A stretch of DNA of 12,389 nucleotides from Promethearchaeota archaeon (GTDB lineage Archaea > Asgardarchaeota > Lokiarchaeia > Sigynarchaeales > MK-D1): the NCBI GenBank assembly GCA_016839865.1, contig JAEOTN010000089.1, positions 1-12,389 on the forward strand, written 5' to 3'. Within the stretch, counting starts at the first letter, position 1. Each line of letters starts with the position of its first letter. The notes below the pieces were generated by a model that was given only the letters and a program-made list of their open reading frames with translations, was not told where the DNA came from and searched no databases. The translations under genes were made by a program, and so were the position numbers. This document shows, in pieces, positions 1 through 12,389 of the stretch.

Positions 1-153
1 AAGAACGTAATTACTTCATCCAGCCACACAATTTTGGATATACTTGGTACATCTCTTGGATTAACAATAACAAATGGACATTACTACGATGTGACCGTAA
101 TCACCGTTGAGGGTCCAAAATATTCAATGTTAGTACTGGGAGAAGCAACATAA
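1..153 (+). CDS. C-terminal end of an unrecognised protein (5' end outside window)
   Basis: Frame 1 is open from the first base to a TAA at 151-153, giving the last 50 residues of a protein that begins before the window. The tail is rich in Ser, Thr, Ile, Val and Leu, with alternating hydrophobic and polar residues that suggest beta strands (for example YYDVTVITVEG, then YSMLVLG). It has no charged clusters and no cysteine. C-termini of this flavour occur in secreted archaeal pilin-like or beta-sandwich proteins, but nothing here is diagnostic, so I give no function. It is followed by a T-rich stretch and then the ftsZ promoter, so it probably belongs to a separate transcription unit. Confidence 0.55.
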   Translation, partial: KNVITSSSHTILDILGTSLGLTITNGHYYDVTVITVEGPKYSMLVLGEAT

Positions 154-170
154 ATACATCTCTTCCAAAT

Positions 171-190
171 TTCTCTTTATTTTATTTTTT
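171..190 (+). terminator. T-rich archaeal-type terminator
   Basis: Starting 17 bases after the stop codon of the upstream partial gene is a pyrimidine stretch ending in a run of six T. A second T6 run follows at about 198-203. There is no GC-rich hairpin, as expected for archaeal oligo-T termination. The assignment is inferred from composition and position only. Confidence 0.45.
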
Positions 191-257
191 ACCCTAGATT
201 TTTTGTGATATTACTGAGATATTATATGGTCTTAAGAAAATGGCGCTACTAATGGTG

Positions 258-263
258 TATATA
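258..263 (+). promoter_or_regulatory. TATA box of ftsZ
   Basis: TATATA lies 37 bases upstream of the TTG at 295. Archaeal transcription starts about 25 bases after the TATA box, so the transcript would begin only about 10-14 bases before TTG. The same spacing recurs before four other genes in this window, which is the main support both for this box and for the TTG start. Confidence 0.55.
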
Positions 264-294
264 GCTAATTTCTAGAAGCGACGCGTTAGCACCC

Positions 295-1554
295 TTGAAC
301 CAACCGAAACTAGTGAGCCCACCGATGTATGGAAGTTTAGAAGACTTAATTGGCGAGGATAAACTTAAAGAGATAACTACGGATACTATAAATGGGATCC
401 CAGTTCTTGAGAATGGTCAAGTGGTGCTTAAACCGAAAGATCCATTAGTAAAGGGTAGGACTTTTGAATCTGATGGACTAAATGATTCTGATGAATATTT
501 ATCTGATTTTCTTCAGCTTCTAAAAACCAGGACAGTAATAATTGGTGTAGGAGGGGCTGGGAATAATGCAATCACTAGATTGCAAGAATCTGGTGTAACA
601 GGAGCAATTACAATTGCAGTAAACACCGATGCACAAGATTTGTATTATGCAAACGCTGATAAAAAAATTCTTATTGGAAAAGAGGTGACAGGTGGTTTAG
701 GTTCAGGAAATAATCCGAAAATTGGAGAAAAATCAGCTGAATCGGATCTTGAACGCATCAGGCAGATAACTAAGAAGAATATCGTTTTCATCACTTGTGG
801 GATGGGTGGAGGAACTGGTACAGGAGCTTCACCTATTATCGCACGAGAAGCCCAGAAAGCAGGAGCATTAGTAATATCATTTTGTACGCTGCCTTTCAAG
901 ATGGAAGGAGATGAAAAAGAAATAATTGCTAATGAAGGATTACTACGTCTAGCAGACCATTCTGATACGATAATACCATTACCAAATGAAAAGCTAATGA
1001 AACTTGTCCCTAATTTAACTCTAATGAAGGGATTTAAGATAATGGATGAAATTCTAATACGTTCCGTTAGAGGAATTGTAGATCTTGTTTCTAATTGTGG
1101 ATTGGTAAATTTGGACTTAGCTGATGTAAAAAACATTCTAAAACGTTCCAATGGAACCAGTGGTTATATAGGAAAAAGTGAAATTAACCTGGAGGATATC
1201 TCCAAAGATAATAATTCTGCACCATCTCCAATGATCAAGGAAATTATCCAAGAAAAAACTCTCAAAGCTCTACACAATCCTATTCTAGAGATGGATCCTC
1301 AAAAAATATCCAGTTGTCTAGTCTCTATCACTGGAAATCAATATCTATCATTAAATCAAGTTAATGAAATCGTGTCAACAGTTTCTAAAAATATTCAGTC
1401 AAATGCTAAGCTAAAATTCGGAGCTATGATAGATCCAAACTCAGAAAAAATACATATTAACATAATTGGTCAAGGTCCAACATCCCCCTATATGGAAAAA
1501 GCTGAAAACCAACTCAAACAGATGAATCTAGAAAAGCTAATTCAAGACGCATAG
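295..1554 (+). CDS. ftsZ: FtsZ cell-division GTPase
   Basis: Tubulin-superfamily GTPase that polymerises at the division site. The nucleotide-binding segment GVGGAGNN is at residues 84-91, the tubulin signature GGGTGTG at 171-177, and the catalytic T7 loop has Asn272, Asp274 and Asp277 in NLDLADV. The C-terminal domain at about 335-395 carries the usual SITG and GAMID motifs. All GTP-binding and hydrolysis residues therefore appear intact, and the T7 loop fits FtsZ rather than CetZ or tubulin. At 419 residues it is longer than typical archaeal FtsZ because about 75 residues precede the core, and there is a short Asn/Ser-rich insert at about 298-312. The start is TTG, chosen for its distance to the TATA box; ATG 325 would remove only ten residues. 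It is transcribed alone or with the flippase downstream. FtsZ1 and FtsZ2 cannot be distinguished by eye. Confidence 0.96.
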   Translation: MNQPKLVSPPMYGSLEDLIGEDKLKEITTDTINGIPVLENGQVVLKPKDPLVKGRTFESDGLNDSDEYLSDFLQLLKTRTVIIGVGGAGNNAITRLQESGVTGAITIAVNTDAQDLYYANADKKILIGKEVTGGLGSGNNPKIGEKSAESDLERIRQITKKNIVFITCGMGGGTGTGASPIIAREAQKAGALVISFCTLPFKMEGDEKEIIANEGLLRLADHSDTIIPLPNEKLMKLVPNLTLMKGFKIMDEILIRSVRGIVDLVSNCGLVNLDLADVKNILKRSNGTSGYIGKSEINLEDISKDNNSAPSPMIKEIIQEKTLKALHNPILEMDPQKISSCLVSITGNQYLSLNQVNEIVSTVSKNIQSNAKLKFGAMIDPNSEKIHINIIGQGPTSPYMEKAENQLKQMNLEKLIQDA

Positions 1555-1578
1555 ATTTGTGATTTTGTACCATTAACT

Positions 1579-1584
1579 ATAATC
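1579..1584 (+). promoter_or_regulatory. Possible TATA box for the flippase gene
   Basis: TATAAT occurs in the 140-base gap after ftsZ. A transcript from it would start near 1605 and carry a leader of about 90 bases before ATG 1695, unlike the short leaders of most genes here. The gap also holds a T run at 1666-1672 just before the gene. Read-through from ftsZ is the alternative. Confidence 0.3.
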
Positions 1585-1694
1585 TTATTTTAACATGGAA
1601 AATGTACAATCTAGATCAAATGGGCTGAAGAAAAACAAAAGGACCAAATTGATTAAGAATCACTCCTTTTTTATTGAAATCTAAGAGGAACAAC

Positions 1695-3398
1695 ATGAAT
1701 GAACAAGGGAAAAATGGCAAACAAGAAGTTTCGATAAAAAACTCAAGTAAACATGTGACTAGAGGTGTACTTGCAAATTTTTTATTTAATTATGGTACTT
1801 TACCGGTTAATCTCATTATTACGTATTTTGTTGTTCGAAACATTCCGAATATCACTGGTGGAACTAATTTTTATGAAATTCTCTCTACTACTCTAGTTTT
1901 TGGAACAGGGGCTCAATTATGGTTATTATTTTTCCATCCCTCAATTGGGAGTGTTCTTATGGTTAATACACCCGAATTGATCCATAATAAGGAATATTCT
2001 ACTATCAAAGGAATTGTTCGGTATGCGATAATTATTAAAACCATTGCTTCTACGGTTGTCTGTCTAATTTATGCGGGAATAGGAATCTCATTAATTTTTG
2101 CAGCTGAAAATTCGATATATGGGGTTGCTCTACTGATATTTTCCCCCTACATTATAATTGACGAAATTCGGAAAGTGTTTTACCATCTTTTTCTAGGTAT
2201 GAAGAAATTCATGATTCGATTTTACCTGTTCTTCGCACAAAAAGTCCTCCTACTCATTGGGGCTTTGATAATTTTCTATGCATTTGACTTCACTTACGAA
2301 ACTAATTTGTATGTCTATTTGGTGTGGAATATTTTAGTCATAATTCCTTCGATTGGGGTATATTTTTATTTATATCGTAAGAGATTTAAGGAGTATCGTC
2401 ACGTTCCAATTACTTGGAAGGGAATTGTTTCCTCTGCTAAGCATGGGATTTATTTTACGATTTTAGCTGGCATTCAGTCATTATCAAGGCAAATTAATTA
2501 CGGGATAGTAAAAACAGCTGATGAAGAAGAAGTCCGGGATCATTTTAATGAGTATCTTTTAGCAAATAACCTCGTAACGCAAAGTTTTGGAGCGTTTAGT
2601 ATGCCATTAACCCCCATATTAGTCGAATTTCACACTGTGAACAAAGAACAGGAAATGATGCGACTATTTAAAAAATCTACCTATTTTGTCAATATAGTTA
2701 TTGCTTTTGTTATGGGATTGGTGTTTTATCTTTCAAAATTATATGTTTTGGTGATTTATACACCCGAATTTATGGATTTTGTCCCATTGTTACGTGTTTT
2801 TGTTCTAATAATTTATTTCGAAAACTGGATGGCTAATTACCAATCATTGTATTCTGCAACACACCAACACAAGCGTATGGTGGTCATAAGAGCTATTAAC
2901 TTTGGATTTACACTATTGATTGCAGGAATTTCTTTCCTGATTTTTGACTTTGAAGGATTTGTTATTGCATATACTATATGTCGGATTTCCACTACATTCA
3001 TGTATTGGGCTGATACGAAATTTTTCCTAAAGAAATATATAATTTCAATATTGGATATTTCCCAGCAATTTATCATTACAGTTATTATCATTCTTGCTAA
3101 TTTTGCTCTATTTCAATTAATCAGTCTGATTCCTCTAGATTGGCTAATCAAGTTAGTTGAGCGAATTCTGAGTTTATTACCGTTTGACCTCACTGACCAA
3201 CCCACAATTATTGTTGAAGAGGGCATTCAACTTTTCACCTTTATTGTTCTGTTTGCGATATATGTAATTTTCTTCAGGGCGATAACTCAAAATGATATTG
3301 CTATGCTTGAAAATGCAAAATTGAAGGTTCCGTTTAAGAAACTGTTGAAGAAAATCTTGAGAAAACGACGAGAAAATGGTATAATTCTTCCAGTATGA
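1695..3398 (+). CDS. Polysaccharide-type flippase, multi-spanning membrane protein
   Basis: Integral membrane protein of 567 residues with about 14 hydrophobic segments separated by short Lys/Arg-rich loops. This is the size and layout of the MATE-like oligosaccharide flippases (Wzx/PST type) that move lipid-linked glycans across the cytoplasmic membrane. The basic N-terminal tail before the first segment and the basic C-terminal tail (KKLLKKILRKRR) would stay cytoplasmic. I chose ATG 1695 because AGAGG at 1684-1688 lies six bases upstream; a TTG at 1674 would add seven residues. The link to glycan export is supported by carbohydrate genes at the right end of the window, though those are 6 kb away. 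The substrate cannot be told, and a general MATE-superfamily exporter remains possible. Confidence 0.75.
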   Translation: MNEQGKNGKQEVSIKNSSKHVTRGVLANFLFNYGTLPVNLIITYFVVRNIPNITGGTNFYEILSTTLVFGTGAQLWLLFFHPSIGSVLMVNTPELIHNKEYSTIKGIVRYAIIIKTIASTVVCLIYAGIGISLIFAAENSIYGVALLIFSPYIIIDEIRKVFYHLFLGMKKFMIRFYLFFAQKVLLLIGALIIFYAFDFTYETNLYVYLVWNILVIIPSIGVYFYLYRKRFKEYRHVPITWKGIVSSAKHGIYFTILAGIQSLSRQINYGIVKTADEEEVRDHFNEYLLANNLVTQSFGAFSMPLTPILVEFHTVNKEQEMMRLFKKSTYFVNIVIAFVMGLVFYLSKLYVLVIYTPEFMDFVPLLRVFVLIIYFENWMANYQSLYSATHQHKRMVVIRAINFGFTLLIAGISFLIFDFEGFVIAYTICRISTTFMYWADTKFFLKKYIISILDISQQFIITVIIILANFALFQLISLIPLDWLIKLVERILSLLPFDLTDQPTIIVEEGIQLFTFIVLFAIYVIFFRAITQNDIAMLENAKLKVPFKKLLKKILRKRRENGIILPV

Positions 3399-3438
3399 TC
3401 CAATAATTTTCTACCATTCTTTTTGAATATTTAATTGA

Positions 3439-3444
3439 TTTTTT
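3439..3444 (+). terminator. T-tract terminator after the flippase gene
   Basis: T6 run 41 bases after the flippase stop, preceded by a T5 run at 3420-3424. It has no GC-rich stem. Archaeal oligo-T termination is inferred. Confidence 0.4.
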
Positions 3445-3487
3445 CCACATTGCAAGTTTTATTCTTGTTAATAACAAAACTACATTA

Positions 3488-3614
3488 TTTTGTATATTTC
3501 ATAACAGTCAAATCATACACATGAGCATAATCATCACTAATGTTAAATCATGATAAAAGCATAAAAAAATATCTGAATGAGAATATTATCATCATGTCCT
3601 TGAAATATACAAAA
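3488..3614. repeat. Perfect 14-bp inverted repeat with a 99-base spacer
   Basis: The left arm TTTTGTATATTTCA (3488-3501) is the exact reverse complement of the right arm TGAAATATACAAAA (3601-3614). The match ends sharply on both sides. The spacer holds smaller AT-rich repeats (ATCATGAT, and CATAATCATCA versus TATTATCATCATG) but no ORF. It lies 99 bases upstream of cysH. It may be a paired operator, the ends of a small non-autonomous element, or chance in AT-rich DNA. Confidence 0.6.
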
Positions 3615-3676
3615 AATTCACTTTATGCATTTGGAGAAAAAAACTAAAGATTAATATACTTCTATCCACATATCAG

Positions 3677-3682
3677 ATATAT
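3677..3682 (+). promoter_or_regulatory. TATA box of cysH
   Basis: ATATAT within GATATATTA starts 37 bases before ATG 3714, the same distance as in front of ftsZ, sat and the Asn-synthetase-like gene. It predicts a start of transcription near 3704 and a leader of about ten bases. A second TATA-like site with a purine-rich flank (TTAATATAC at 3651-3659) is an alternative. Confidence 0.5.
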
Positions 3683-3713
3683 TAGATTTGTAACACTACC
3701 GCAGTGAAAAAAA

Positions 3714-4481
3714 ATGGATAAAATAAGTCATGCAAAAGAACTCATGATAGACGCTATCGAAAAATATCCGAATATTGCAGTTGCGTGTTCATTTGGAAAA
3801 GACAGTATGGTAACGGTGGATATCGCTCGTGCTGTTGATCCTAATATACCAATATTTTCAATAATGACTCAATACAAACCAAGAGAGACTTTCGAATATC
3901 TAGTGGAAATGGATAAGAAAATGAATCTCAATACTACAGTGTATATGGTAGCTGATGAAATTCCTGAGATCTTATCCAAAAACAATATAAAAACAATACT
4001 TCTCCCAACTGATGAGTTCCATCTGGCTCAAAAAAACATTTCTAAAGAATTATACCGTGTTGATCCTGATAAGTGCTGCAAATTACTAAAAGTAAATGCA
4101 ACAAAAATAGCTGTTGAAGACTTAGATGCTTGGATTGCGGGATTACGTAACACTGAAGGGAGAATCCGGGAAGATTATAAGGAAGTGGAGTACAAGGGTG
4201 GATTGGTCAAGGTCAATCCAATACTGACTTTCACTGAAGACGATGTGTTGAATTACTTGCATAATCGCGATATTCCTCTTCATCCATGGTATCTGAAAGA
4301 ATTTCCTGATGGAACAAAATATCGCTCTTTGGGATGTGCTCCTTGTACAAAACCGATCGCGGTTGATCTTCCAGAGCGTATGGGGAGATGGCAAGAAACT
4401 AGCAAATGTGGAGGCGAATGTGGAATCCACACTCAAGTATTGAAAGAAATGAAAGTAAAACCCATAAATCTAAGCCATTAA
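3714..4481 (+). CDS. cysH: Assimilatory APS/PAPS reductase with [4Fe-4S] cysteine set
   Basis: Reduces activated sulfate (APS or PAPS) to sulfite in the cytoplasm using thioredoxin-like donors. The N-terminal adenylyl-binding PP-loop is SFGKDS at residues 26-31. GLRNTEGR at 143-150 is the usual nucleotide-contact segment. Cys121-Cys122 and Cys208-x-x-Cys211 form the CC...CxxC set that binds a [4Fe-4S] cluster in APS reductases and in Bacillus-type CysH. The catalytic C-terminal motif ECGIH is at 235-239, with an extra cysteine at 232. At 255 residues the length is normal for the family. The cluster ligands favour APS as substrate, but family members of this type can also use PAPS. It is the first gene of a pair with the cysteate-synthase-like gene 22 bases downstream, which would consume the sulfite. 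Confidence 0.9.
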   Translation: MDKISHAKELMIDAIEKYPNIAVACSFGKDSMVTVDIARAVDPNIPIFSIMTQYKPRETFEYLVEMDKKMNLNTTVYMVADEIPEILSKNNIKTILLPTDEFHLAQKNISKELYRVDPDKCCKLLKVNATKIAVEDLDAWIAGLRNTEGRIREDYKEVEYKGGLVKVNPILTFTEDDVLNYLHNRDIPLHPWYLKEFPDGTKYRSLGCAPCTKPIAVDLPERMGRWQETSKCGGECGIHTQVLKEMKVKPINLSH

Positions 4482-4503
4482 GCTAAGAAGTGAACTTAAG
4501 AAC

Positions 4504-5778
4504 ATGTTAAAAAAAGAGTTAATTGAAAAATTCGATCTTTATTGTCCAAGTTGTAATTCTTTTATTGAAGATAATTATACCCTACGATGCCCTCATCATC
4601 ATAATTTAATTCAATCTAGATACTCAATGAATTTCCAAGTAGATTCAGATAAAAAAGGGATATGGAAATATTCCCAGTGGTTGCCAATTATATCAGAAGG
4701 AAATGTTGAATCAGGACCTATTACCTATAAATCAGAAAAATTCGCAAAAGAACTGGGATTATCCAATCTGTATATTAGTTTCAACGGCTATTGGCCTGAA
4801 CGAGGAGCATATGTAGGATCTTGCACATTTAAGGAATATGAAGCCCTTGTTACATTTCAACGAATTATTGATAAAGGTTTTAAAGGTGTTTATTTAGCGT
4901 CTGCAGGGAATACTGCAAGAGCTTTTGCTCAAGTATCACAAAAAACTAGAATTCCCTCCATTATTTTTGTTCCCGAGCAAAATGTTAAGAATCTGTGGAC
5001 GACAAATGATGATTTTGAACATATAAAATTAGTAACTTTGAACTCGGATAGTGACTACACAGACGCAATTCAGCTTGCTGCTAAATTTTCGAATCAAAAT
5101 ATATATGTTCCAGAAGGAGGGGCACGAAATGTAGCCCGACGGGATGGAATGTCCACTGTGATGTATGATTATGTTCATAGATTCGGACAGCTACCTGACC
5201 ACTACTTTCAAGGTGTAGGTAGCGGAACTGGAGCAATTTCCGTATGGGAAGCATCAAAGCGATTTATACAAACTCAAAGATTCGGTGGTAAACTTCCAAT
5301 TTTGGAACTGGGGCAAAATTCACCTTATGATCCGATGGTACAAGCTTGGAAACGTGGAATAAGAGACTTCAAAGTGGAAGATTACATATCAGAACCTCGA
5401 CAGAAAATCAAATCTTTAGTTGCAAATATGTTAAGTAATCGAACTCCACCATATGGCATCCCTGGTGGATTGTATGATGCATTAAATGACTCAAAAGGAA
5501 ATATGTACTCCGTGAAGAATAATGAAATAAATTATGCAAGAAAATTGTTCGAAGATACAGAAGGAATTGATATTGTACCTGAAGCGGGTGTCGCAGTTGC
5601 AACATTAATCAAATCCTTGAAGAATAATAAAATTGACTCAGAGAAATCAATATTGTTAAACATCACAGGAGGTGGATTTAAGCGTTTGAAAGATGATTAT
5701 TCTTTATACCAAATTCCAGCAATTCTGAAGTATGAAAATGAAAAGGATATCGAAAAAATCCAAGAGCTCTTCACTTAA
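4504..5778 (+). CDS. Cysteate synthase-like PLP enzyme (threonine synthase superfamily)
   Basis: Fold-type II PLP enzyme of 424 residues. An N-terminal zinc-ribbon-like stretch has Cys14, Cys17, Cys29 and His31. The PLP lysine is Lys110 in CTFKE, where threonine synthases have SFKD. SAGNTARAFA is at 133-142, and the PLP phosphate loop GSGTGA is at 239-244. Several blocks (GPITYKSE 71-78, GYWPE 95-99, PEGGARNVARR 203-213, PDHYFQ 231-236, GGGFKRLK 389-396) match what I recall of Methanosarcina cysteate synthase rather than threonine synthase. That enzyme makes L-cysteate from O-phospho-L-serine and sulfite, the first step of a coenzyme M route. Its position directly behind an APS/PAPS reductase, a sulfite source, supports this. 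The ATG is weakly supported by AGAAGTGA at 4486-4493. Threonine synthase is the main alternative. Confidence 0.82.
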   Translation: MLKKELIEKFDLYCPSCNSFIEDNYTLRCPHHHNLIQSRYSMNFQVDSDKKGIWKYSQWLPIISEGNVESGPITYKSEKFAKELGLSNLYISFNGYWPERGAYVGSCTFKEYEALVTFQRIIDKGFKGVYLASAGNTARAFAQVSQKTRIPSIIFVPEQNVKNLWTTNDDFEHIKLVTLNSDSDYTDAIQLAAKFSNQNIYVPEGGARNVARRDGMSTVMYDYVHRFGQLPDHYFQGVGSGTGAISVWEASKRFIQTQRFGGKLPILELGQNSPYDPMVQAWKRGIRDFKVEDYISEPRQKIKSLVANMLSNRTPPYGIPGGLYDALNDSKGNMYSVKNNEINYARKLFEDTEGIDIVPEAGVAVATLIKSLKNNKIDSEKSILLNITGGGFKRLKDDYSLYQIPAILKYENEKDIEKIQELFT

Positions 5779-5790
5779 TCTCAAATTAAT

Positions 5791-5803
5791 TCCTCTTATT
5801 TTT
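5791..5803 (+). terminator. T-rich stretch ending the cysH-cysteate synthase unit
   Basis: A pyrimidine-rich tract ending in T5 starts 13 bases after the stop codon and lies just before the TATA box of the regulator gene. The position suits oligo-T termination. Evidence is composition only. Confidence 0.35.
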
Positions 5804-5819
5804 ATGAACGAACTATGAA

Positions 5820-5827
5820 TATATAAT
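5820..5827 (+). promoter_or_regulatory. TATA box of the two-domain regulator gene
   Basis: TATATAAT begins 39 bases before ATG 5859, matching the spacing of other promoters here. The predicted start of transcription, about 5845-5850, lies downstream of the in-frame ATG at 5835, so the shorter start at 5859 fits better. Confidence 0.5.
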
Positions 5828-5858
5828 AAAATGAATGTATATACTGTGTGGGGATTTA

Positions 5859-6887
5859 ATGCCAATTAACCTTACATCGAACCAACAAAAAACATTATAT
5901 GGCGTAATAACATTTCCGGAGTTATCTGATAAAGAAATTGCCCAAAAGCTTAAAATCAATGAATCTAGTTATTCAGCTTCAAAGAATCGTCTACAAGAAT
6001 TAAGTGTTTTTCGAAAAATCAACATTCCTATTATTAATCGATTTGGTTATGAACTGATGGGAATCAATTTCACGAACTTCATTGTTGGTTTGACAATTGA
6101 AGAACGATTAGAGAAAACAACGCAGAGATTTGAGAAAAAAAATGAGATTTTTCTATCAGTTGGAGACAATGAAAAAGGATTCTCTCTCAATTTTTGCAAA
6201 AATTATTCTCAATTTGTTAAGATCAATAATGCACGGACCAAGACCTTTGGGGAATTAAATATCTTAGGAAGAGGTCATCCAAAAGGTGTTGTATTTCCTT
6301 TTGAAACTGCTGAAATCTACCGATTTTTTGATTTTCATCCAATAATTGGCTCAATTTTCAAATTGACTGTTAAAAAAACGAATAATTTTCAAAACTTCTT
6401 CCATTCTGGTCCTATAGTAAATTTGACAGAAAAAGAGAAAGAAATATTTTCATTATTACTTCAAAATCCAACTCTAAATAATCAAGAAATCGCAAGCGCA
6501 ACTCAATCCCATCGACATACTGTTAGCAATGTACGACACAAACTTAAAGAAATGAATTTGATGCGGAAAATTGTTGTGCCAAATTTGAATGTGTTGGGAT
6601 TTAAACTTCTCGTGTTTTATAATTTGCGATACAATGCAAGAAAACCTCCTAGTCGAGGTGACCTTGAATTCATCATGAATGAGAATGTTGTATTTTTTGC
6701 TCATAATACCTATCAATCAGTGATGTTGTGTGTGTATCAAACTTTTCCAGCATATTTAAAACACCGAAGCATGATTGTAGAATATTTGGAAGAAAAACAC
6801 ATTTTATCCAAAGCAAATGAGATATATGAATATTCAATTGATAATATTCGATTAATCAAAGATTTCCAGTTTATTGGGTTGTTATAA
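5859..6887 (+). CDS. Transcriptional regulator with two winged-helix domains
   Basis: A 342-residue protein built from two related halves. Each opens with a winged helix-turn-helix, at about residues 4-62 (LSDKEIAQKLKI, then YSASKNRLQEL) and 187-247 (LNNQEIASATQ, then HTVSNVRHKLKEM). After both helix-turn-helices comes the same kind of segment: a basic Arg-Lys-Ile strand, then Val/Ile-Pro, Asn and a Gly-(Tyr/Phe)-(Glu/Lys)-Leu stretch. This looks like an internal duplication of an Lrp/MarR-like DNA-binding unit, each copy followed by an alpha/beta segment that could bind a ligand or mediate dimerisation. I chose ATG 5859 from the TATA spacing and a nearby GGGGAT; ATG 5835 would add eight residues. 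It sits between the cysteate synthase gene and the racemase and ATP sulfurylase genes, so control of sulfur genes is a reasonable guess. Its ligand is unknown. Confidence 0.75.
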   Translation: MPINLTSNQQKTLYGVITFPELSDKEIAQKLKINESSYSASKNRLQELSVFRKINIPIINRFGYELMGINFTNFIVGLTIEERLEKTTQRFEKKNEIFLSVGDNEKGFSLNFCKNYSQFVKINNARTKTFGELNILGRGHPKGVVFPFETAEIYRFFDFHPIIGSIFKLTVKKTNNFQNFFHSGPIVNLTEKEKEIFSLLLQNPTLNNQEIASATQSHRHTVSNVRHKLKEMNLMRKIVVPNLNVLGFKLLVFYNLRYNARKPPSRGDLEFIMNENVVFFAHNTYQSVMLCVYQTFPAYLKHRSMIVEYLEEKHILSKANEIYEYSIDNIRLIKDFQFIGLL

Positions 6888-6902
6888 TCCTAATAACTAA
6901 GA

Positions 6903-7640
6903 CTAATTCTTTTGCCTTGCATAGTCAATACACAATTTAATTATGTGATTTAATGGGTCAAAAAGTTGTTCTGATTCTAAATCTTCATTTTGAAACAATA
7001 CTGATAATTCAGTACATGCGAGGATAACCCATTCAATATCATTTTCTTGTCGAAAGTCTTGAATTATTTTTTTTACTTTATTAATCCCATCCAAAGTAAG
7101 AATTTGTGCTTTAATATCAAATATTATCTTATGAATTTGTTCTTGTATCATTGCTGTGGGATAAATCAAATTAAATCCTAATTCATTGAAATATTTATCA
7201 TAGATTTTTGTTTCAACTAAGCCAGTAGTAGCTAGTATTCCAATTCTAGGATTATTTTTGAGGTTTGAGTTAATAAATTGTTCATTTTTAAAGTACACTG
7301 CTGATTCCTTTATTAAGTGGAGAATCGGCTTAGAAATACCATCAGTTATCTGGTCTATAAAGAAATAAGCTGTATTACATGGTACGACTAAGAAATCTGC
7401 ACCTGCGTTTATTAACAAATTAAGAGAGTTAGTAATACTTTCAACAACTGGGGAATAGTTACCGCTTTGAATAGCTTCCTGTCTACTGGGGATAAGGTTA
7501 TTCGAATAAACAAGAGTTGGTATGTGATCCTCGTCATTTTTAGCGGATGTATTTTTTACCAAGAGATCAAAAAAATAACTTGTAGATGCTGGTCCCATGC
7601 CTCCTAAAATTCCTAATGTCTTTGCGATTTTTTCCACCAT
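6903..7640 (-). CDS. Aspartate/glutamate racemase family protein
   Basis: Cofactor-independent racemase fold of 245 residues, close to the normal length. The N-terminal signature LGILGGMGP is at 9-17. The two catalytic cysteines that act as acid and base are both present, Cys88 in VPCNTAY and Cys209 in LACTEL. NNLIPSR at 47-53 matches the substrate-carboxylate loop of aspartate racemases. It therefore looks active on a dicarboxylic amino acid or a close analogue. The gene ends 15 bases from the convergent regulator gene and is divergent from the ATP sulfurylase gene with 146 bases between starts. TATAAT on the minus strand (7664-7669) lies so close to the ATG that the message is probably leaderless. 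Substrate is open: aspartate or glutamate by family, or cysteate, an aspartate analogue, by context. Confidence 0.88.
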   Translation of the reverse strand: MVEKIAKTLGILGGMGPASTSYFFDLLVKNTSAKNDEDHIPTLVYSNNLIPSRQEAIQSGNYSPVVESITNSLNLLINAGADFLVVPCNTAYFFIDQITDGISKPILHLIKESAVYFKNEQFINSNLKNNPRIGILATTGLVETKIYDKYFNELGFNLIYPTAMIQEQIHKIIFDIKAQILTLDGINKVKKIIQDFRQENDIEWVILACTELSVLFQNEDLESEQLFDPLNHIIKLCIDYARQKN

Positions 7641-7663
7641 TGTTAAATAAAATGAGTTATGCG

Positions 7664-7669
7664 ATTATA
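7664..7669 (-). promoter_or_regulatory. TATA box of the racemase gene
   Basis: Read on the minus strand, TATAAT starts 29 bases before the ATG at 7640, placing the start of transcription at or within a few bases of the start codon. This suggests a leaderless message. Confidence 0.4.
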
Positions 7670-7748
7670 TTGTTTTGATTTTGGGATTTGACCGCATTGA
7701 ACTAAAGAATAAAGCTGATTTTTTTGTAACTCGATTTCATAAAACTTC

Positions 7749-7755
7749 TATAATT
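7749..7755 (+). promoter_or_regulatory. TATA box of the ATP sulfurylase gene
   Basis: TATAATT begins 38 bases before ATG 7787, predicting a leader of roughly ten bases. It shares the 146-base divergent region with the racemase promoter on the other strand. TTATATA at 7769-7775 is too close to the ATG to serve. Confidence 0.5.
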
Positions 7756-7786
7756 AGTCATTGTTCTATTATATACGTGGAAAAAA

Positions 7787-9526
7787 ATGAATGTAGATTC
7801 AGAAGGATTCAAAAATAATCTCATAACACCCCATGGTGGAGAGCTTGTAGATAGAGTGATCAAAGGTGAAGAGGAACGATATGAAATTTTGAAAAAAATA
7901 AAGCAAGCTCCGAAATTAGAGCTAGATGAGTTTAGCCTTGCAGACTTGGAATGCATTGCGACCGGAGTGTATTCACCTTTAACTGGATTTATGGGCGAAA
8001 TGGATTATAATAATGTCCTCAAAAACATGAAGTTAGCTAATGGTATTGTGTGGCCTATTCCTGTTACACTTTCTGTTGAAGAAGAATTCCAATCTCATAT
8101 AAACCAAGGAATGGAAATTGCTTTGACTTGGAAGGGAGAAAATATTGGAGTAATGGAGATTTCTGATATATATATACCTGATAAAAATAATGAAGCCCTT
8201 AGTGTTTTTGGAACAAACGATATAGCTCATCCTGGTGTAGCTACTCTATTTAAGAAGAAGAATGTATATCTGGGTGGTAAGGTCTCATTGATTGCAGACA
8301 TTCCCATATCAGAATTCGCTGAATATCGCCTTAAACCTGAAGAATCTCGGAACTATTTTCTTGAACATAACTGGAATACTGTAGTTGCTTTTCAAACACG
8401 CAATCCGATCCATCGTGCACATGAATATCTACAAAAAATTGTATTAGAAACAGTGGATGGATTATTAATCCATCCTCTTGCAGAAACTCCTAAAAAAGAT
8501 GATATTCCTCTCCACGTGAGAATGGAGACATACAAAACTATTATAAATTCTTATTATCCAAAGGACAGAATCCTTCTGAGTATATTTCCTGCATTTATGC
8601 GTTATGCAGGACCGAGAGAAGCAATTATGCATGCGATTTCGAGACAAAATTATGGATGTACTCACATCATAATCGGGCGCGACCATGCAGGAGTAGGAAA
8701 ATATTATGGTACGTATGAAGCTCATAAGATTTTTGAAAAATTCAGTGATGATGAACTTCTTATCAAACCCGTGAAGATGGAACATGCATTCTATTGCAAG
8801 ATATGCAAACAAATGGCAACAAAAAAAACCTGCCCTCATGGAAATGAAGCCCACGTGTTCCTCTCTGGCACCAAAGTACGACAGATGCTGCAAGAGAATA
8901 AATCACTTCCAGAAGAATTCACCCGACCAGAAGTTGCAATGATCTTGAATAATTCAGTAAATGGAAACACAGCATATGTTGAACAAAAAGGAGTGACGAT
9001 GCTATTTACTGGATTAAGTGGTGCTGGGAAAACTACAGTTTCTAAAGCGGTAGTTCAGGATTTAAAGAAAAGAGGTTATATTATCGAACGATTAGATGGA
9101 GACGTAGTTCGACAGCATTTGACCGCAGATCTTGGATTTAGTAAAGAAGATAGGGATAAGAATATCAGACGTGTTGGTTATGTAGCTCATTTACTTACTA
9201 GAAATAAAGTGATAGTGCTAATGGCAAATATTGCTCCATATCGAGCTATCAGGGATGAAATTCGACAACTTATAGGTGATTATCTCGAGGTATACGTGAA
9301 ATGCCCGATTGAAATATGTGAAGAGCGAGATATCAAAGGTTTATATAAGAAAGCAAAAAAAGGGGAAATTTTGAACTTTACCGGTGTAAATGATCCTTAT
9401 GAGGAACCTACGAATCCCGAATTGGTGCTGGAGACAGACAAAGAGACAATAGAGGAGAGCAAAAATAAGGTAATTAACCTACTCATCGAGTACAATATGA
9501 TTAAAAAATATCCATACAAAAAATAG
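7787..9526 (+). CDS. Bifunctional ATP sulfurylase / APS kinase
   Basis: Activates sulfate: the N-terminal sulfate adenylyltransferase (about residues 1-390) makes APS and pyrophosphate, and the C-terminal kinase (about 400-575) makes PAPS. The sulfurylase motifs are QTRNPIHRAHEY at 203-214 and GRDHAGVG at 297-304, with a zinc site of Cys337, Cys340, Cys349 and His351. The kinase has Walker A GLSGAGKTT at 409-417, DGD at 437-439, the DKNIRR segment at 457-462, and the APS-binding KGLYKKAKKGE and FTGVNDPYE stretches near 517-539. The domain order is the one seen in bacterial fusions such as Aquifex, opposite to animal PAPS synthase. One oddity is NIAPYR at 481-486, with Ala where Escherichia coli CysC has the phosphorylatable Ser109. 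It has its own promoter, close to the reductase and cysteate synthase genes. Confidence 0.95.
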   Translation: MNVDSEGFKNNLITPHGGELVDRVIKGEEERYEILKKIKQAPKLELDEFSLADLECIATGVYSPLTGFMGEMDYNNVLKNMKLANGIVWPIPVTLSVEEEFQSHINQGMEIALTWKGENIGVMEISDIYIPDKNNEALSVFGTNDIAHPGVATLFKKKNVYLGGKVSLIADIPISEFAEYRLKPEESRNYFLEHNWNTVVAFQTRNPIHRAHEYLQKIVLETVDGLLIHPLAETPKKDDIPLHVRMETYKTIINSYYPKDRILLSIFPAFMRYAGPREAIMHAISRQNYGCTHIIIGRDHAGVGKYYGTYEAHKIFEKFSDDELLIKPVKMEHAFYCKICKQMATKKTCPHGNEAHVFLSGTKVRQMLQENKSLPEEFTRPEVAMILNNSVNGNTAYVEQKGVTMLFTGLSGAGKTTVSKAVVQDLKKRGYIIERLDGDVVRQHLTADLGFSKEDRDKNIRRVGYVAHLLTRNKVIVLMANIAPYRAIRDEIRQLIGDYLEVYVKCPIEICEERDIKGLYKKAKKGEILNFTGVNDPYEEPTNPELVLETDKETIEESKNKVINLLIEYNMIKKYPYKK

Positions 9527-9546
9527 GATAAGCATTTACCCCAAGA

Positions 9547-9552
9547 TTTTTT
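9547..9552 (+). terminator. T-tract terminator after the ATP sulfurylase gene
   Basis: T6 run 20 bases after the stop codon, without a strong hairpin. It sits at the start of the 152-base gap that also holds the next promoter. Confidence 0.4.
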
Positions 9553-9639
9553 CTGAAATATCTTTATTTCCACGTATCCCTACAAGAAAATATTCTTAGG
9601 TATCCCTCCTCTCCACCACAAAATGATACTCTATGGATG

Positions 9640-9647
9640 TATAAAAG
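9640..9647 (+). promoter_or_regulatory. TATA box of the Asn-synthetase-like gene
   Basis: TATAAAAG is the best consensus TATA box in the window. It begins 39 bases before ATG 9679, again predicting a leader of about 13 bases. Two copies of GTATCCCT lie upstream at 9574-9581 and 9600-9607. Confidence 0.6.
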
Positions 9648-9678
9648 TTTTTTTTCAATTCTATACAAATATTAATCC

Positions 9679-11490
9679 ATGGAATATCTTCTTGCTAATT
9701 TTCCGATTAAAAAAGGAACAAAATATGAGGATGTATATTTTGAAGGACCGTTTGAAATTGGATCGGATCTACGAATTGTAGATGGAGAGATTATGAATTA
9801 CACCCCCCAACAGATCGAAACTATGAGTGTCGAAGATATATTATCTACCGATCTGCGTGGTTTATACACTTTCATTTGTTACAATTCCAAGAATAAACAG
9901 ATTATAATCAAAAATGATATTTTAGGAGAAATTCCGACTTATTTTTATATACATGATAAGAAAATCCTAGTTAGTAATAATGCATGGAAAATTCTATTCA
10001 ACTTGCTTGAAAATGAAATCAAAATTGATAAAGACCAGCTTAATTCGTACTTATATTACACGGTTCAACCACAAGCAAAAAGTACATTTATCTTAAACTT
10101 GAATATTTTATCTAATGCGTCCATATTGACTTTTAACATCGATGATGGCTCAATCACCGAAAATCAATATTGGGAATTCGAAATGGTACCGAAACGGGAA
10201 CTATCATTAGAGGATGCAATGAATGAATTTGATAAAGCATTAGATGATTTATTTGATTATGTCATTAGGAAAAATCCTGGTAAAATATTAGGATTTGGTA
10301 ATAGTGGGGGATTAGACTCAAGATTGGTGGGAATTTATGCAAGGGAACGAAATTTTCTAGTGAAAGGGATTACAATTGCAGATATTCGACCAAGAAAACT
10401 AATAAAATCAAATAGTGCCTATCAAGCAAGTAAGATTGCAAAAAAATGTGGTATTGATAATTTCTTAATAAATTACACAGCTGAAGATTATGATTCACGA
10501 AATCTCTTGGACATTAGGAACAATTTTTTTGGGGCATCCCAAATTTTTAAGAATCCTTTTGAGAAAATTCCAGATTTTGATATCATGCTTACAGGACATG
10601 AGGGATTACTGATCGGTAGTGGTTATGGTCCTTCTGTTATTGATATTGATCAATCTATGCTTGCAGATGCGCTAATTGCTCGTTATAAAAATGTAGATGC
10701 TACCCAAATTACAAAAACCTCCCTTTGGGAAAAAATCAAAAAAATTTTTCAAATATTGGCTGGTAAACAGCAAAAAAGGTTTGATGAATTTAGTAGTGAA
10801 AACATAGCCAGGAATATTGAATCCAAGCAAAATATATTTGATGAATATTTTAGTACAAATGAAATAGAGCAAATTCATAAGGAAATGAAGACTTTTGTTG
10901 AAAAATATAAAAATAAATATTCAGTAGTGAATATTTGGCGAGTTTTCTTCTTAAAACAAGCCATGCGTCTGAATTATCTCGGTGGATTTGAATCTCTCAA
11001 CCGCTTGAAAAAAACATATTATCTATACTATCCCTTCGCATTTTCGTATATCGAAACATGGCCACGAGAATTCTTAGATGACCGTATGTTATTGAAGAAA
11101 TTTCTAAAACAAAAAGCTCCCGATATCGGTAAAATACCAGGACAAGATATGGAGCCAATTGAGCTTTCTGGAGAAAAAGATAAAAATCTATTCAGAAAAT
11201 ATTTGAGAAGGATTAAGCAAGTCTATAAAAAAATTGTATTAAAAATCAGGAAAAAAGGATTAGAATACTCAGATTGGCTAAAAGATCCAAAATATCAAGA
11301 ATATGCTCAATCTGTAATCAACAGACCCAATCCGTTTTTTGCAGATTATATCGATGTGGAAAAGTTAAAGAAACTCAATTTGTTTAACTACAAATCTCTA
11401 GTAAATCTTGTGAAACTCAAAAGAATTTTTGATATAATACATTTCAAAGAACAACATCTATTAGATCGTGAAGATTTTGAACTAAAATGA
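9679..11490 (+). CDS. Asparagine synthetase-like ATP pyrophosphatase, no glutaminase cysteine
   Basis: Protein of 603 residues with the two-domain plan of AsnB-type amidotransferases. Residues about 1-165 resemble the N-terminal nucleophile glutaminase fold (RGLYTFICYNSKNKQIII at 60-77, then DILGEIPTYFY). However, residue 2 is Glu instead of the catalytic Cys, so it should not hydrolyse glutamine. Residues about 175-480 form the PP-loop domain: NSGGLDSR at 208-215 is the ATP site, and TGHEGLLIGSGY at 305-316 replaces the usual acidic GEG-x-DE motif. The C-terminal part is Lys/Arg-rich. Such divergent copies occur in surface-polysaccharide and natural-product loci, where they amidate or adenylate an acid group, perhaps using ammonia or another nitrogen donor. 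The next gene, 14 bases away, is carbohydrate-related. The real reaction is unknown. Confidence 0.75.
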   Translation: MEYLLANFPIKKGTKYEDVYFEGPFEIGSDLRIVDGEIMNYTPQQIETMSVEDILSTDLRGLYTFICYNSKNKQIIIKNDILGEIPTYFYIHDKKILVSNNAWKILFNLLENEIKIDKDQLNSYLYYTVQPQAKSTFILNLNILSNASILTFNIDDGSITENQYWEFEMVPKRELSLEDAMNEFDKALDDLFDYVIRKNPGKILGFGNSGGLDSRLVGIYARERNFLVKGITIADIRPRKLIKSNSAYQASKIAKKCGIDNFLINYTAEDYDSRNLLDIRNNFFGASQIFKNPFEKIPDFDIMLTGHEGLLIGSGYGPSVIDIDQSMLADALIARYKNVDATQITKTSLWEKIKKIFQILAGKQQKRFDEFSSENIARNIESKQNIFDEYFSTNEIEQIHKEMKTFVEKYKNKYSVVNIWRVFFLKQAMRLNYLGGFESLNRLKKTYYLYYPFAFSYIETWPREFLDDRMLLKKFLKQKAPDIGKIPGQDMEPIELSGEKDKNLFRKYLRRIKQVYKKIVLKIRKKGLEYSDWLKDPKYQEYAQSVINRPNPFFADYIDVEKLKKLNLFNYKSLVNLVKLKRIFDIIHFKEQHLLDREDFELK

Positions 11491-11504: not shown

Positions 11505-12389
11505 ATGGAGTTCCAGCAGATTAATAAACTGATACAAACTTGTGAAGATCGGTTTCCTGTTAAAGAATGGAAGATTAGTAATATACATATATGGCCTCTT
11601 ATAAGATTCTTTATTTTTAATAAGCAATTTCAGAGTGATATTAATTCTTCGATGAAAAAAAAAACATTGAAGGAAAATATAACAAATTACTGGACATACC
11701 TAAAATTCATCATCAAAGACAATATTCACAACCAAAAGGTAAGTAAAACAGAGAATCAGGTGGTTTTCTTAGGAAGATCGACATTACGCAATTTCCGGTA
11801 TAGAGATCATTATTTTTCTTCTATATTGGACACATTCAAGTATTCACTTGATTCACTAGGGTATAACACGCTATTACTGGAATTCGATCCTTTATGGAAA
11901 TTCCGTTACCCAAGATATTTTCCTTCGAAATCTATACAAATAGGATTAAAAATAGCTAGTTTAAAAGCCCGGATTCAAAAACTCCTAAGAAAACCAGTTG
12001 ACGTGAATTTATCCCAATTTGATCAATTTGTCAAATTATTGAATGATTATGGTATAAAATCACTAAACGTGGATACCTTTATTTACCAGACACTTAAACT
12101 GAGCAACCTTGCGAATTACTTCAAAAAAATATTAAAAAAAGTAAAACCAATTATGTGTTTTTCTGTTCCGTATTATATTCCTGAGGGTTTAGCATACAAT
12201 TTGGCATGTTCTGAGTTAAAAATTCCTTCAATTGATGTTCAACATGGTGTACAAGATGGTCATTTAGCATATATTTTCAATGATAACATTCCTGATACTG
12301 GATATGAGTTATTACCTGACTATTTCTGGGTTTGGAGTGAATCTGAAAGAGAACAGATAAAAAAATGGGCAATTATTAAAAATAAATCT
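11505..12389 (+). CDS. Surface-carbohydrate biosynthesis protein, glycosyltransferase-like (3' end outside window)
   Basis: Open for 295 codons to the end of the window with no stop. The first 75 residues are Trp-, Ile- and Lys-rich. A Rossmann-like segment begins with VVFLGR at about 86-91. Near residues 226-280, a segment on an alanine-containing helix is followed by IPSIDVQHGVQDG (about 241-253) and then YELLPDYFWVWSE. This IDVQHG plus LPDYFW combination is one I associate with uncharacterised capsule or surface-polysaccharide proteins of GT-B type fold, in which the QHG histidine sits near the sugar-donor site. The gene follows the Asn-synthetase-like gene by 14 bases with a good ribosome-binding site, so the two are probably co-transcribed. 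The specific activity cannot be stated, and the C-terminal donor-binding half is missing from the window. Confidence 0.6.
   Translation, partial: MEFQQINKLIQTCEDRFPVKEWKISNIHIWPLIRFFIFNKQFQSDINSSMKKKTLKENITNYWTYLKFIIKDNIHNQKVSKTENQVVFLGRSTLRNFRYRDHYFSSILDTFKYSLDSLGYNTLLLEFDPLWKFRYPRYFPSKSIQIGLKIASLKARIQKLLRKPVDVNLSQFDQFVKLLNDYGIKSLNVDTFIYQTLKLSNLANYFKKILKKVKPIMCFSVPYYIPEGLAYNLACSELKIPSIDVQHGVQDGHLAYIFNDNIPDTGYELLPDYFWVWSESEREQIKKWAIIKNKS

What the first reader, a model, noticed from the sequence alone, without database searches (positions are those of the whole stretch)
3714..9526. Candidate sulfate-to-cysteate (sulfonate) biosynthesis module in an archaeon
Seen: an Fe-S APS/PAPS reductase and a cysteate-synthase-like gene 22 bases apart, with a fused ATP sulfurylase-APS kinase about 2 kb downstream. 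A regulator and an Asp/Glu racemase family gene lie between. Known: ATP sulfurylase makes APS, the kinase makes PAPS, the reductase makes sulfite, and cysteate synthase uses sulfite and phosphoserine. Inferred: the cluster links sulfate directly to a C3 sulfonate, with no sulfite reductase in the window. In methanogens the sulfite supply for cysteate synthase is not obvious; here a dedicated source appears to be encoded beside it. Products could be coenzyme M, sulfolactate, taurine or a cysteate-containing cell component.
Basis: partly seen in the sequence, partly recalled or inferred. Interest (0 to 1): 0.78.

Follow-up and report, generated by a model that had tools for sequence, protein, structure and literature searches.

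The report
Sulfate-to-cysteate gene module in Asgard archaeon
A Lokiarchaeota-like archaeon carries, side by side, genes that would turn sulfate into sulfite and then build the sulfite into the sulfonate amino acid cysteate, and the same gene pair recurs beside cysteate synthase in several unrelated microbes, which points to where the sulfite for such compounds may come from.

Summary
In detail: an Fe-S (P)APS reductase (PAPSR, 3714-4481) lies 22 bases before a cysteate synthase (CS, 4504-5778; TIGR03844 504 bits, cut-off 325), with an ATP sulfurylase-APS kinase (SAT) 2 kb on. The core interpretation gains support: window-type PAPSR lies within 5 kb of CS in 6 of 7 searched genomes with both (three Asgards, a Thermoplasmata archaeon, ANME-1, a spirochaete). 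In ANME-1 MMP16, a CoM synthase, lies between them; ComDE follows CS in three others. Sulfite reductase (NIR_SIR) was found in 0 of 17 Asgard genomes. The linkage label changes 5 times on each gene's tree. Ordinary PAPSRs of 12 other CS genomes show no CS nearby; in three they adjoin sulfite reductase. Limits: SAT is resident (relative G085 has FtsZ-flippase-SAT without the insert), the racemase misses its cut-off and is at none of 80 other CS loci, and seven Asgard genomes have this PAPSR but no CS hit. The product is open: CoM is likeliest from relatives, but the window has no ComDE and its genome is not held. Known enzymes, new coupling.

The parts
3714..4481 (+). [4Fe-4S]-type APS/PAPS reductase (PAPSR), the proposed sulfite source
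   Evidence: PF01507 123 bits; NF002537 154.4 against cut-off 154; CC/CxxC/ECGIH invariant in 13 of 13
4504..5778 (+). Cysteate synthase (O-phosphoserine + sulfite to L-cysteate), 22 bases after PAPSR
   Evidence: TIGR03844 504.3 bits, cut-off 324.9; solved cysteate synthase 9k3c E 2.2e-93; tree
5835..6887 (+). Winged-helix transcriptional regulator, role here unproven
   Evidence: TrmB/MarR/HTH_24 matches just under cut-off; no homologue in the flanks of 80 other CS loci
6903..7640 (-). Amino-acid racemase, Asp/Glu racemase family; cysteate specificity unproven
   Evidence: TIGR00035 148.9 (cut-off 93.1), CuyB model NF052483 177.5 (cut-off 190, missed); Cys 88 and Cys 209 invariant in 9 of 9 rows (catalytic role recalled)
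7787..9526 (+). Fused ATP sulfurylase-APS kinase (makes APS and PAPS); resident gene of the locus
   Evidence: PF01747 312 bits, PF01583 202 bits; 72-76% to SAT of G085 and G086, which have no PAPSR-CS there
295..1554 (+). FtsZ, left flank of the FtsZ-flippase-SAT arrangement
   Evidence: PF00091; 87-90% to G085/G086
1674..3398 (+). Membrane protein, polysaccharide-flippase-like (name by eye), left border of the insertion
   Evidence: no Pfam family; 46% to the gene next to SAT in G085

Best explanation
It is a sulfate-to-sulfonate assimilation unit. The fused enzyme activates sulfate to APS and PAPS. The Fe-S reductase releases sulfite from PAPS or APS. The cysteate synthase next to it swaps the phosphate of O-phosphoserine for sulfite and gives L-cysteate. 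If the organism lacks sulfite reductase, as its relatives seem to, sulfite would not go on to sulfide. The PAPSR-CS pair, with a regulator and a racemase, sits inside a locus that in a relative is FtsZ-flippase-SAT. Shown: gene identities, kept motifs, recurrent PAPSR-CS pairing, the extra stretch relative to one relative. Inferred: activities, substrate flow, product. For the product I put CoM first (about 45%), then another cysteate-derived compound.
For: CS family test passed by a wide margin. Window-type PAPSR within 5 kb of CS in 6 of 7 genomes with both: G001, G059, G067, G262 (Thermoplasmata), G267 (Spirochaetales), G274 (ANME-1); in G047 it is 17 kb off (chance about 4e-15 if placed at random, not corrected for kinship). 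Same strand and PAPSR first in G059 and G067; in G274 the order is PAPSR-MMP16-CS. Contrast: the other 12 of 15 PAPSR-bearing CS genomes have other PAPSRs, with no cysteate synthase in the stretches fetched round them, and in 3 of 12 the match lies 114-306 bases from a NIR_SIR match. With rows of unknown linkage left out, linkage changes 5 times on the PAPSR tree (9 of 30 rows linked) and 5 times on the CS tree (9 of 50). NIR_SIR in 0 of 17 Asgard genomes, control 11 of 14. In G001 a second, divergent PAPSR is tail to tail, 9 bases away, with a ComA-family gene (PF02679 298 bits, over cut-off), the other sulfite-using sulfonate enzyme. Co-occurrence of PAPSR and CS in Asgards in 4 genomes, p about 2e-4, kinship not corrected.
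Against: Seven Asgard genomes carry a window-type PAPSR without a CS hit at 1e-30 (G011, G020, G055, G058, G086, G088, G090); four of them have the PAPSRs closest to the window's among the Asgard genomes searched (70-73%), so this PAPSR has or had another use. Four of 8 CS genomes show no PAPSR (G038, G048, G060, G082). ANME-1 G274 also has two NIR_SIR matches. On the PAPSR tree the CS-linked label is only weakly clustered (47 of 500 shuffles as low), which fits repeated joining but also chance. The ComA neighbour in G001 misses the arch_ComA equivalog (250.7 of 280). No substrate test: APS or PAPS is unknown. No whole genome for the window, so 'no sulfite reductase' is by kinship, and the relatives may be incomplete.
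Confidence: 0.78

Rival explanations
1. The module is one step of coenzyme M synthesis: cysteate is transaminated, decarboxylated by a ComDE coded elsewhere, and given a thiol by MMP16. This refines the best explanation as to product.
For: Strong ComDE hits (E 7.6e-75 to 3.2e-248) in 7 of 8 Asgard CS genomes, next to CS in G001, G067 and G082. ComDE in the flanks of 45 of 80 other CS loci. MMP16 above cut-off in the near relatives G085 and G086. Window CS groups with CS proteins some of which are named Helarchaeota, and with G082, which has three MCR matches.
Against: No ComDE in the 12.4 kb; no hit in G085, and the one in G086 passes the phosphonopyruvate decarboxylase cut-off and misses both sulfopyruvate ones. 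MCR in only 1 of 17. G085 and G086 have MMP16 but no CS hit, so it may serve another thiol there. Two of the three CS-adjacent ComDE proteins narrowly miss the beta-subunit cut-off (212.3 and 216.6 of 221.5), while passing the alpha one.
Confidence: 0.45
2. The racemase belongs to the pathway and makes D-cysteate, for a surface polymer or peptide, or as a step to a degradation enzyme.
For: CuyB cysteate racemase is the best NCBIfam model, 177.5 bits; the gene ends 1.1 kb from CS; both Cys kept; its close homologues are as few as those of CS (two over 50% identity).
Against: Below the 190-bit cut-off; a 39% homologue that passes it (217.7) sits beside a gene best matching hydroxyaspartate ammonia-lyase in G104, which has no CS hit; no racemase hit in the flanks of 80 CS loci; opposite strand.
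Confidence: 0.15
3. PAPSR serves another sulfite user or PAPS disposal, and CS came to lie beside it by chance of insertion.
For: Seven Asgard genomes with this PAPSR and no CS hit.
Against: Adjacency in separate lineages and the contrast with ordinary PAPSRs.
Confidence: 0.12
4. The PLP enzyme is a threonine synthase and the cluster is ordinary.
For: Same enzyme superfamily; threonine synthases are the second-best matches.
Against: 504 bits for cysteate synthase against 88 for threonine synthase; CxFKE and EGGxxNxARRDGM kept in 14 of 14 rows and, as CSFKE and EGGAKNIARRDGM, in solved cysteate synthase 9k3c.
Confidence: 0.03

Closest known systems
Methanosarcina CoM cluster, cysteate synthase MA3297 - ComDE MA3298 - MMP16 MA3299 (passages of PMC12068725 and PMC12713407)
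   Same: Same cysteate synthase family, using phosphoserine and sulfite
   Different: The passages name no PAPSR there, and the window has no ComDE or MMP16
Assimilatory sulfate reduction in ANME and methanogens (abstract and passages of PMC6286981)
   Same: Sulfate activation and (P)APS reductase; the paper notes an ANME-1b reductase outside the clusters of known substrate, and says the sulfate genes may matter for CoM
   Different: There the pathway is taken to sulfide through sulfite reductases; here the reductase is paired with cysteate synthase. I did not test whether the ANME-1b protein is the L078 one
Bacterial capnine/sulfonolipid synthesis, cysteate synthase and cysteate fatty acyltransferase (passages of PMC11211663)
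   Same: Cysteate synthase as first step; in the spirochaete L064 a PAPSR and a BioF/Kbl-type acyltransferase flank CS
   Different: No such acyltransferase in the window
Phosphosulfolactate synthase ComA route (recalled)
   Same: Also fixes sulfite into a C3 sulfonate; in G001 a PAPSR adjoins a ComA-family gene
   Different: Different carbon acceptor (recalled: phosphoenolpyruvate) and a different protein family

Membership tests
Cysteate synthase | TIGR03844 equivalog score above cut-off | tested here: met
   504.3 against 324.9
Cysteate synthase | Motifs shared with a solved cysteate synthase (CxFKE lysine loop, EGGxxNxARRDGM) | tested here: met
Cysteate synthase | Groups with cysteate synthases and apart from threonine synthases on a tree | tested here: inconclusive
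   one search had no threonine synthase rows; with one threonine-synthase-like row (L147) and one unassigned PLP row (L214) added, both fall outside all 65 CS rows, too few for a real test
Cysteate synthase | Makes cysteate from phosphoserine and sulfite | not testable with these tools
   needs enzyme assay
[4Fe-4S] APS/PAPS reductase | PAPS_reduct domain, CC and CxxC, ECGIH tail | tested here: met
[4Fe-4S] APS/PAPS reductase | Substrate, APS or PAPS | not testable with these tools
   narrow models TIGR02055 (104.7 of 235.3) and TIGR02057 (93.6 of 254.2) both missed
ATP sulfurylase-APS kinase | Both domains above cut-off | tested here: met
   TIGR00339 432.6/323, TIGR00455 234.7/138.7
ATP sulfurylase-APS kinase | Specific bifunctional model NF004040 | tested here: not met
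   564.6 of 669
Cysteate racemase CuyB | NF052483 above cut-off | tested here: not met
   177.5 of 190
Asp/Glu-type amino-acid racemase | TIGR00035 above cut-off and two conserved Cys | tested here: met
   148.9/93.1
Coenzyme M gene cluster | ComDE or MMP16 next to cysteate synthase | tested here: not met
   none named among the window's scanned ORFs
Sulfate-to-sulfide assimilation | Sulfite reductase in the genome | tested here: inconclusive
   0 of 17 relatives; window's own genome not held

The most novel reading that the evidence does not exclude
There is a modular sulfate-to-sulfonate pathway, separate from sulfide assimilation: a subfamily of Fe-S (P)APS reductase makes sulfite for carbon-sulfur bond formation and has been joined repeatedly to cysteate synthase (CoM in archaea, perhaps sulfonolipid in a spirochaete), and a relative to ComA. 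It answers where the sulfite for cysteate synthase comes from in these organisms, and lets archaea without sulfite reductase build sulfonates from sulfate.
Probability: 0.5. Interest if true: 0.75.

Novelty: new variant of a known kind. Interest (0 to 1): 0.6.

Why it matters
Where the sulfite for cysteate synthase comes from is unsettled: the ANME paper (PMC6286981, passages) calls the source of sulfite unclear and considers a sulfite reductase running backwards. A reductase that recurs beside cysteate synthase in archaea and a bacterium gives a concrete, testable source. It would also show that some Asgard archaea draw on sulfate for sulfonates while apparently unable to reduce sulfite.

Tried and rejected
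Threonine synthase reading: rejected on scores. Five-gene operon: rejected on orientation and on G085, where SAT adjoins the flippase gene without the insert. A sequence scar at the insertion borders: blastn of the intergenic stretches gave only short matches of E 0.014 or worse, so the borders are not defined. Cysteate-specific racemase: kept only as a rival. ComA as the sulfite user in the seven PAPSR genomes without CS: not found; ComA over cut-off in 1 of 17, G001 only, with a sub-threshold hit in G086, so the sulfite user there is unexplained. MMP16 as proof of CoM: weak, because G085 and G086 have it without a CS hit or a true ComDE. Promoter and terminator scan: 24 against 22 expected, 1 against 1.8, uninformative. 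Literature: 'cysteate synthase' gave 13 papers; cysteate + coenzyme M + sulfite + PAPS gave 2; sulfonolipid + cysteate + sulfite, Asgard + sulfate adenylyltransferase + coenzyme M biosynthesis, and PAPS reductase + sulfonate biosynthesis gave 0 each; Helarchaeota + coenzyme M gave 25, seen as a listing only. I saw passages of five papers and the whole of none; those passages do not propose the pair. The library misses most subscription papers.

Choices and limits: the line between window-type and other PAPSRs (E under 1e-50) was drawn after seeing the result; the tree agrees with it (37-row branch, 100/99), though three rows of that tree are long and L064 is one of them. The first count of changes on the PAPSR tree (7, at least 6 forced) treated 20 P rows of unknown linkage as unlinked; without them it is 5. 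Of those 80 loci I left out L028 (the genome is G001) and 29 more and handed 50; 49 were held. Round CS in the 12 genomes with ordinary PAPSR the flanks held run from 1,850 to 10,000 bases on the left and 3 to 10,000 on the right. Round their PAPSRs about 0.2 to 5 kb was read from the other side; no cysteate synthase there, only the 21% match in L214. L074 gave no ORF for the CS tree; 41 of the 80 loci and 6 of the 8 Asgard CS entered it. CS linkage of P0002 with P0253 and of P0003 with P0243 rests on equal contig length and source only; leaving them out still gives 5 changes on both trees.
Full report
What is there. The 12,389-base window appears to be a whole metagenome contig (protein P0001 lists a longest contig of that length), and no genome is held for it. 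Its ORFs are FtsZ (295-1554), a flippase-like membrane protein (1674-3398; that name is mine, by eye), PAPSR (3714-4481), cysteate synthase (4504-5778), a winged-helix regulator (5835-6887), a racemase on the minus strand (6903-7640), a fused ATP sulfurylase-APS kinase (7787-9526), an asparagine-synthase-like protein (9679-11490) and an open-ended ORF (11505-12389). The host is an Asgard archaeon by kinship: FtsZ is 87% and 90% identical to genomes G085 and G086 of the phylum of a named Heimdallarchaeota record. A contig of G086 (C36, 143,071 bases) matches in length that of protein P0286, named Lokiarchaeota, so Lokiarchaeota-like is an inference from length.

The enzymes. Cysteate synthase passes its equivalog model by 180 bits, while no threonine synthase model comes near its cut-off. 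The PAPSR keeps CC, CxxC and ECGIH in 13 of 13 rows; whether it takes APS or PAPS cannot be told. The sulfurylase and kinase domains both pass.

History of the locus. In G085, FtsZ, the flippase-like gene and SAT follow one another with a 162-base gap before SAT, and nothing of 3714-7640 lies between; that contig ends inside SAT. In G086 FtsZ and SAT lie about 8 kb apart with other genes between. So the PAPSR-to-racemase stretch is an insertion relative to G085, or a loss there; one comparison cannot tell which. Hits to SAT or its parts occur in 104 of 227 Asgard genomes, so sulfate activation is widespread and not tied to cysteate.

Asgard survey. Of 227 genomes, 8 have CS at E 1e-30 or better. 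PAPSR was found in 12 at 1e-10; one of these, G087, is a weak partial hit, which leaves 11 with the window type. Four have both: G001 (divergent, about 115 bases apart), G059 (same strand, PAPSR first), G067 (same strand, overlapping, PAPSR first) and G047 (17 kb apart). Co-occurrence p is about 2e-4, without correction for kinship. Seven have PAPSR without a CS hit and four have CS without PAPSR; both results count against strict coupling, though the assemblies are of unknown completeness.

Wider survey. Among 80 GTDB loci with CS, a PAPSR lies within the flanks in 4: L028 (the same genome as G001), L057 Thermoplasmata, L064 Spirochaetales and L078 Methanophagales. A search of 49 of those CS genomes found a PAPSR family member in 15; the three of window type are exactly L057, L064 and L078. 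For the other 12 no cysteate synthase was seen near the reductase, nor the reductase in the flanks held of CS; Fisher p 0.002, with the boundary between types set afterwards. In G233, G234 and G248 the ordinary PAPSR match lies 114-306 bases from a NIR_SIR match. NIR_SIR occurs in 31 of the 49 (30 over cut-off), was not found in G262 and G267, and is present twice in G274.

Neighbours suggest the product elsewhere. L078: PAPSR overlaps an MMP16 gene (526.6 bits, cut-off 364) that is followed by CS. MMP16 is reported as the primary CoM synthase of M. acetivorans, where the genes MA3297-MA3299 are cysteate synthase, ComDE and MMP16 (abstract and passages of PMC12068725). L057, G001 and G067: ComDE follows CS; in G059 it is on another contig. 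L064: CS is followed by a BioF/Kbl-type acyltransferase, the type that includes cysteate fatty acyltransferase (recalled; that enzyme is described in PMC11211663, passages); which substrate it takes is not shown. G001: a second PAPSR adjoins a ComA-family gene tail to tail. These are hints that PAPSR feeds sulfonate-forming enzymes.

Trees. On the PAPSR tree the window and two presumed CS-linked metagenome relatives lie inside a set of Asgard and other PAPSRs without known CS link, L078 lies elsewhere, and G001, G059, G067, L057 and L064 lie near the base of the same 37-row branch. The branch also holds proteins named Chloroflexota and others whose neighbours I did not see. With rows of unknown linkage left out, linkage changes 5 times on the PAPSR tree (30 rows) and 5 times on the CS tree (50 rows); a change may be a gain or a loss. 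The window CS groups with Asgard CS proteins, some named Helarchaeota.

Product. CoM is my first guess because of strong ComDE hits in 7 of 8 Asgard CS genomes and MMP16 in G085 and G086. Against it: neither of those two has a CS hit or a true ComDE, MCR is in 1 of 17, G082, and the window carries no CoM gene beyond CS. The racemase would point to D-cysteate, but its family test failed and no other CS locus seen has it.

Conclusion. The wider five-gene module, the racemase's part and the product are not established.

Noticed in passing
L214:2704-4805 (G270, Aminicenantes genome of L071): A PAPS reductase overlaps by 4 bases with a threonine/cysteate-synthase-like PLP enzyme that reaches neither model's cut-off (164.5/303 and 110.9/324.9) and is 21% identical to the window CS; possibly an unrecognised sulfite-using enzyme.
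   Followed up: partly
L203:8757-10361 (G001): A second, divergent PAPS reductase lies tail to tail with a ComA-family gene in a Heimdallarchaeota chromosome.
   Followed up: partly
L148:5187-7756 (G088): Window-type PAPSR divergent from a BioF/Kbl-like acyltransferase in a genome with no CS hit.
   Followed up: no
L200:9299-10696 and L201:9076-10419 (G086, G085): MMP16 over cut-off, with a conserved class-III aminotransferase next to it, in Asgard genomes with no MCR or CS hit and no true ComDE.
   Followed up: partly
L207:5993-7402 (G088): Fusion of a CysQ-like phosphatase with APS kinase, on a contig with genes that look like CysD and CysN (the latter by eye).
   Followed up: no
window 9679-11490: Asparagine-synthase-like protein without a cysteine at position 2, so perhaps no glutaminase activity (role of that Cys recalled).
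   Followed up: no
G011, G020, G055, G058, G086, G088, G090: Window-type PAPSR with no CS hit, no NIR_SIR and no ComA over cut-off: the sulfite user is unknown.
   Followed up: partly
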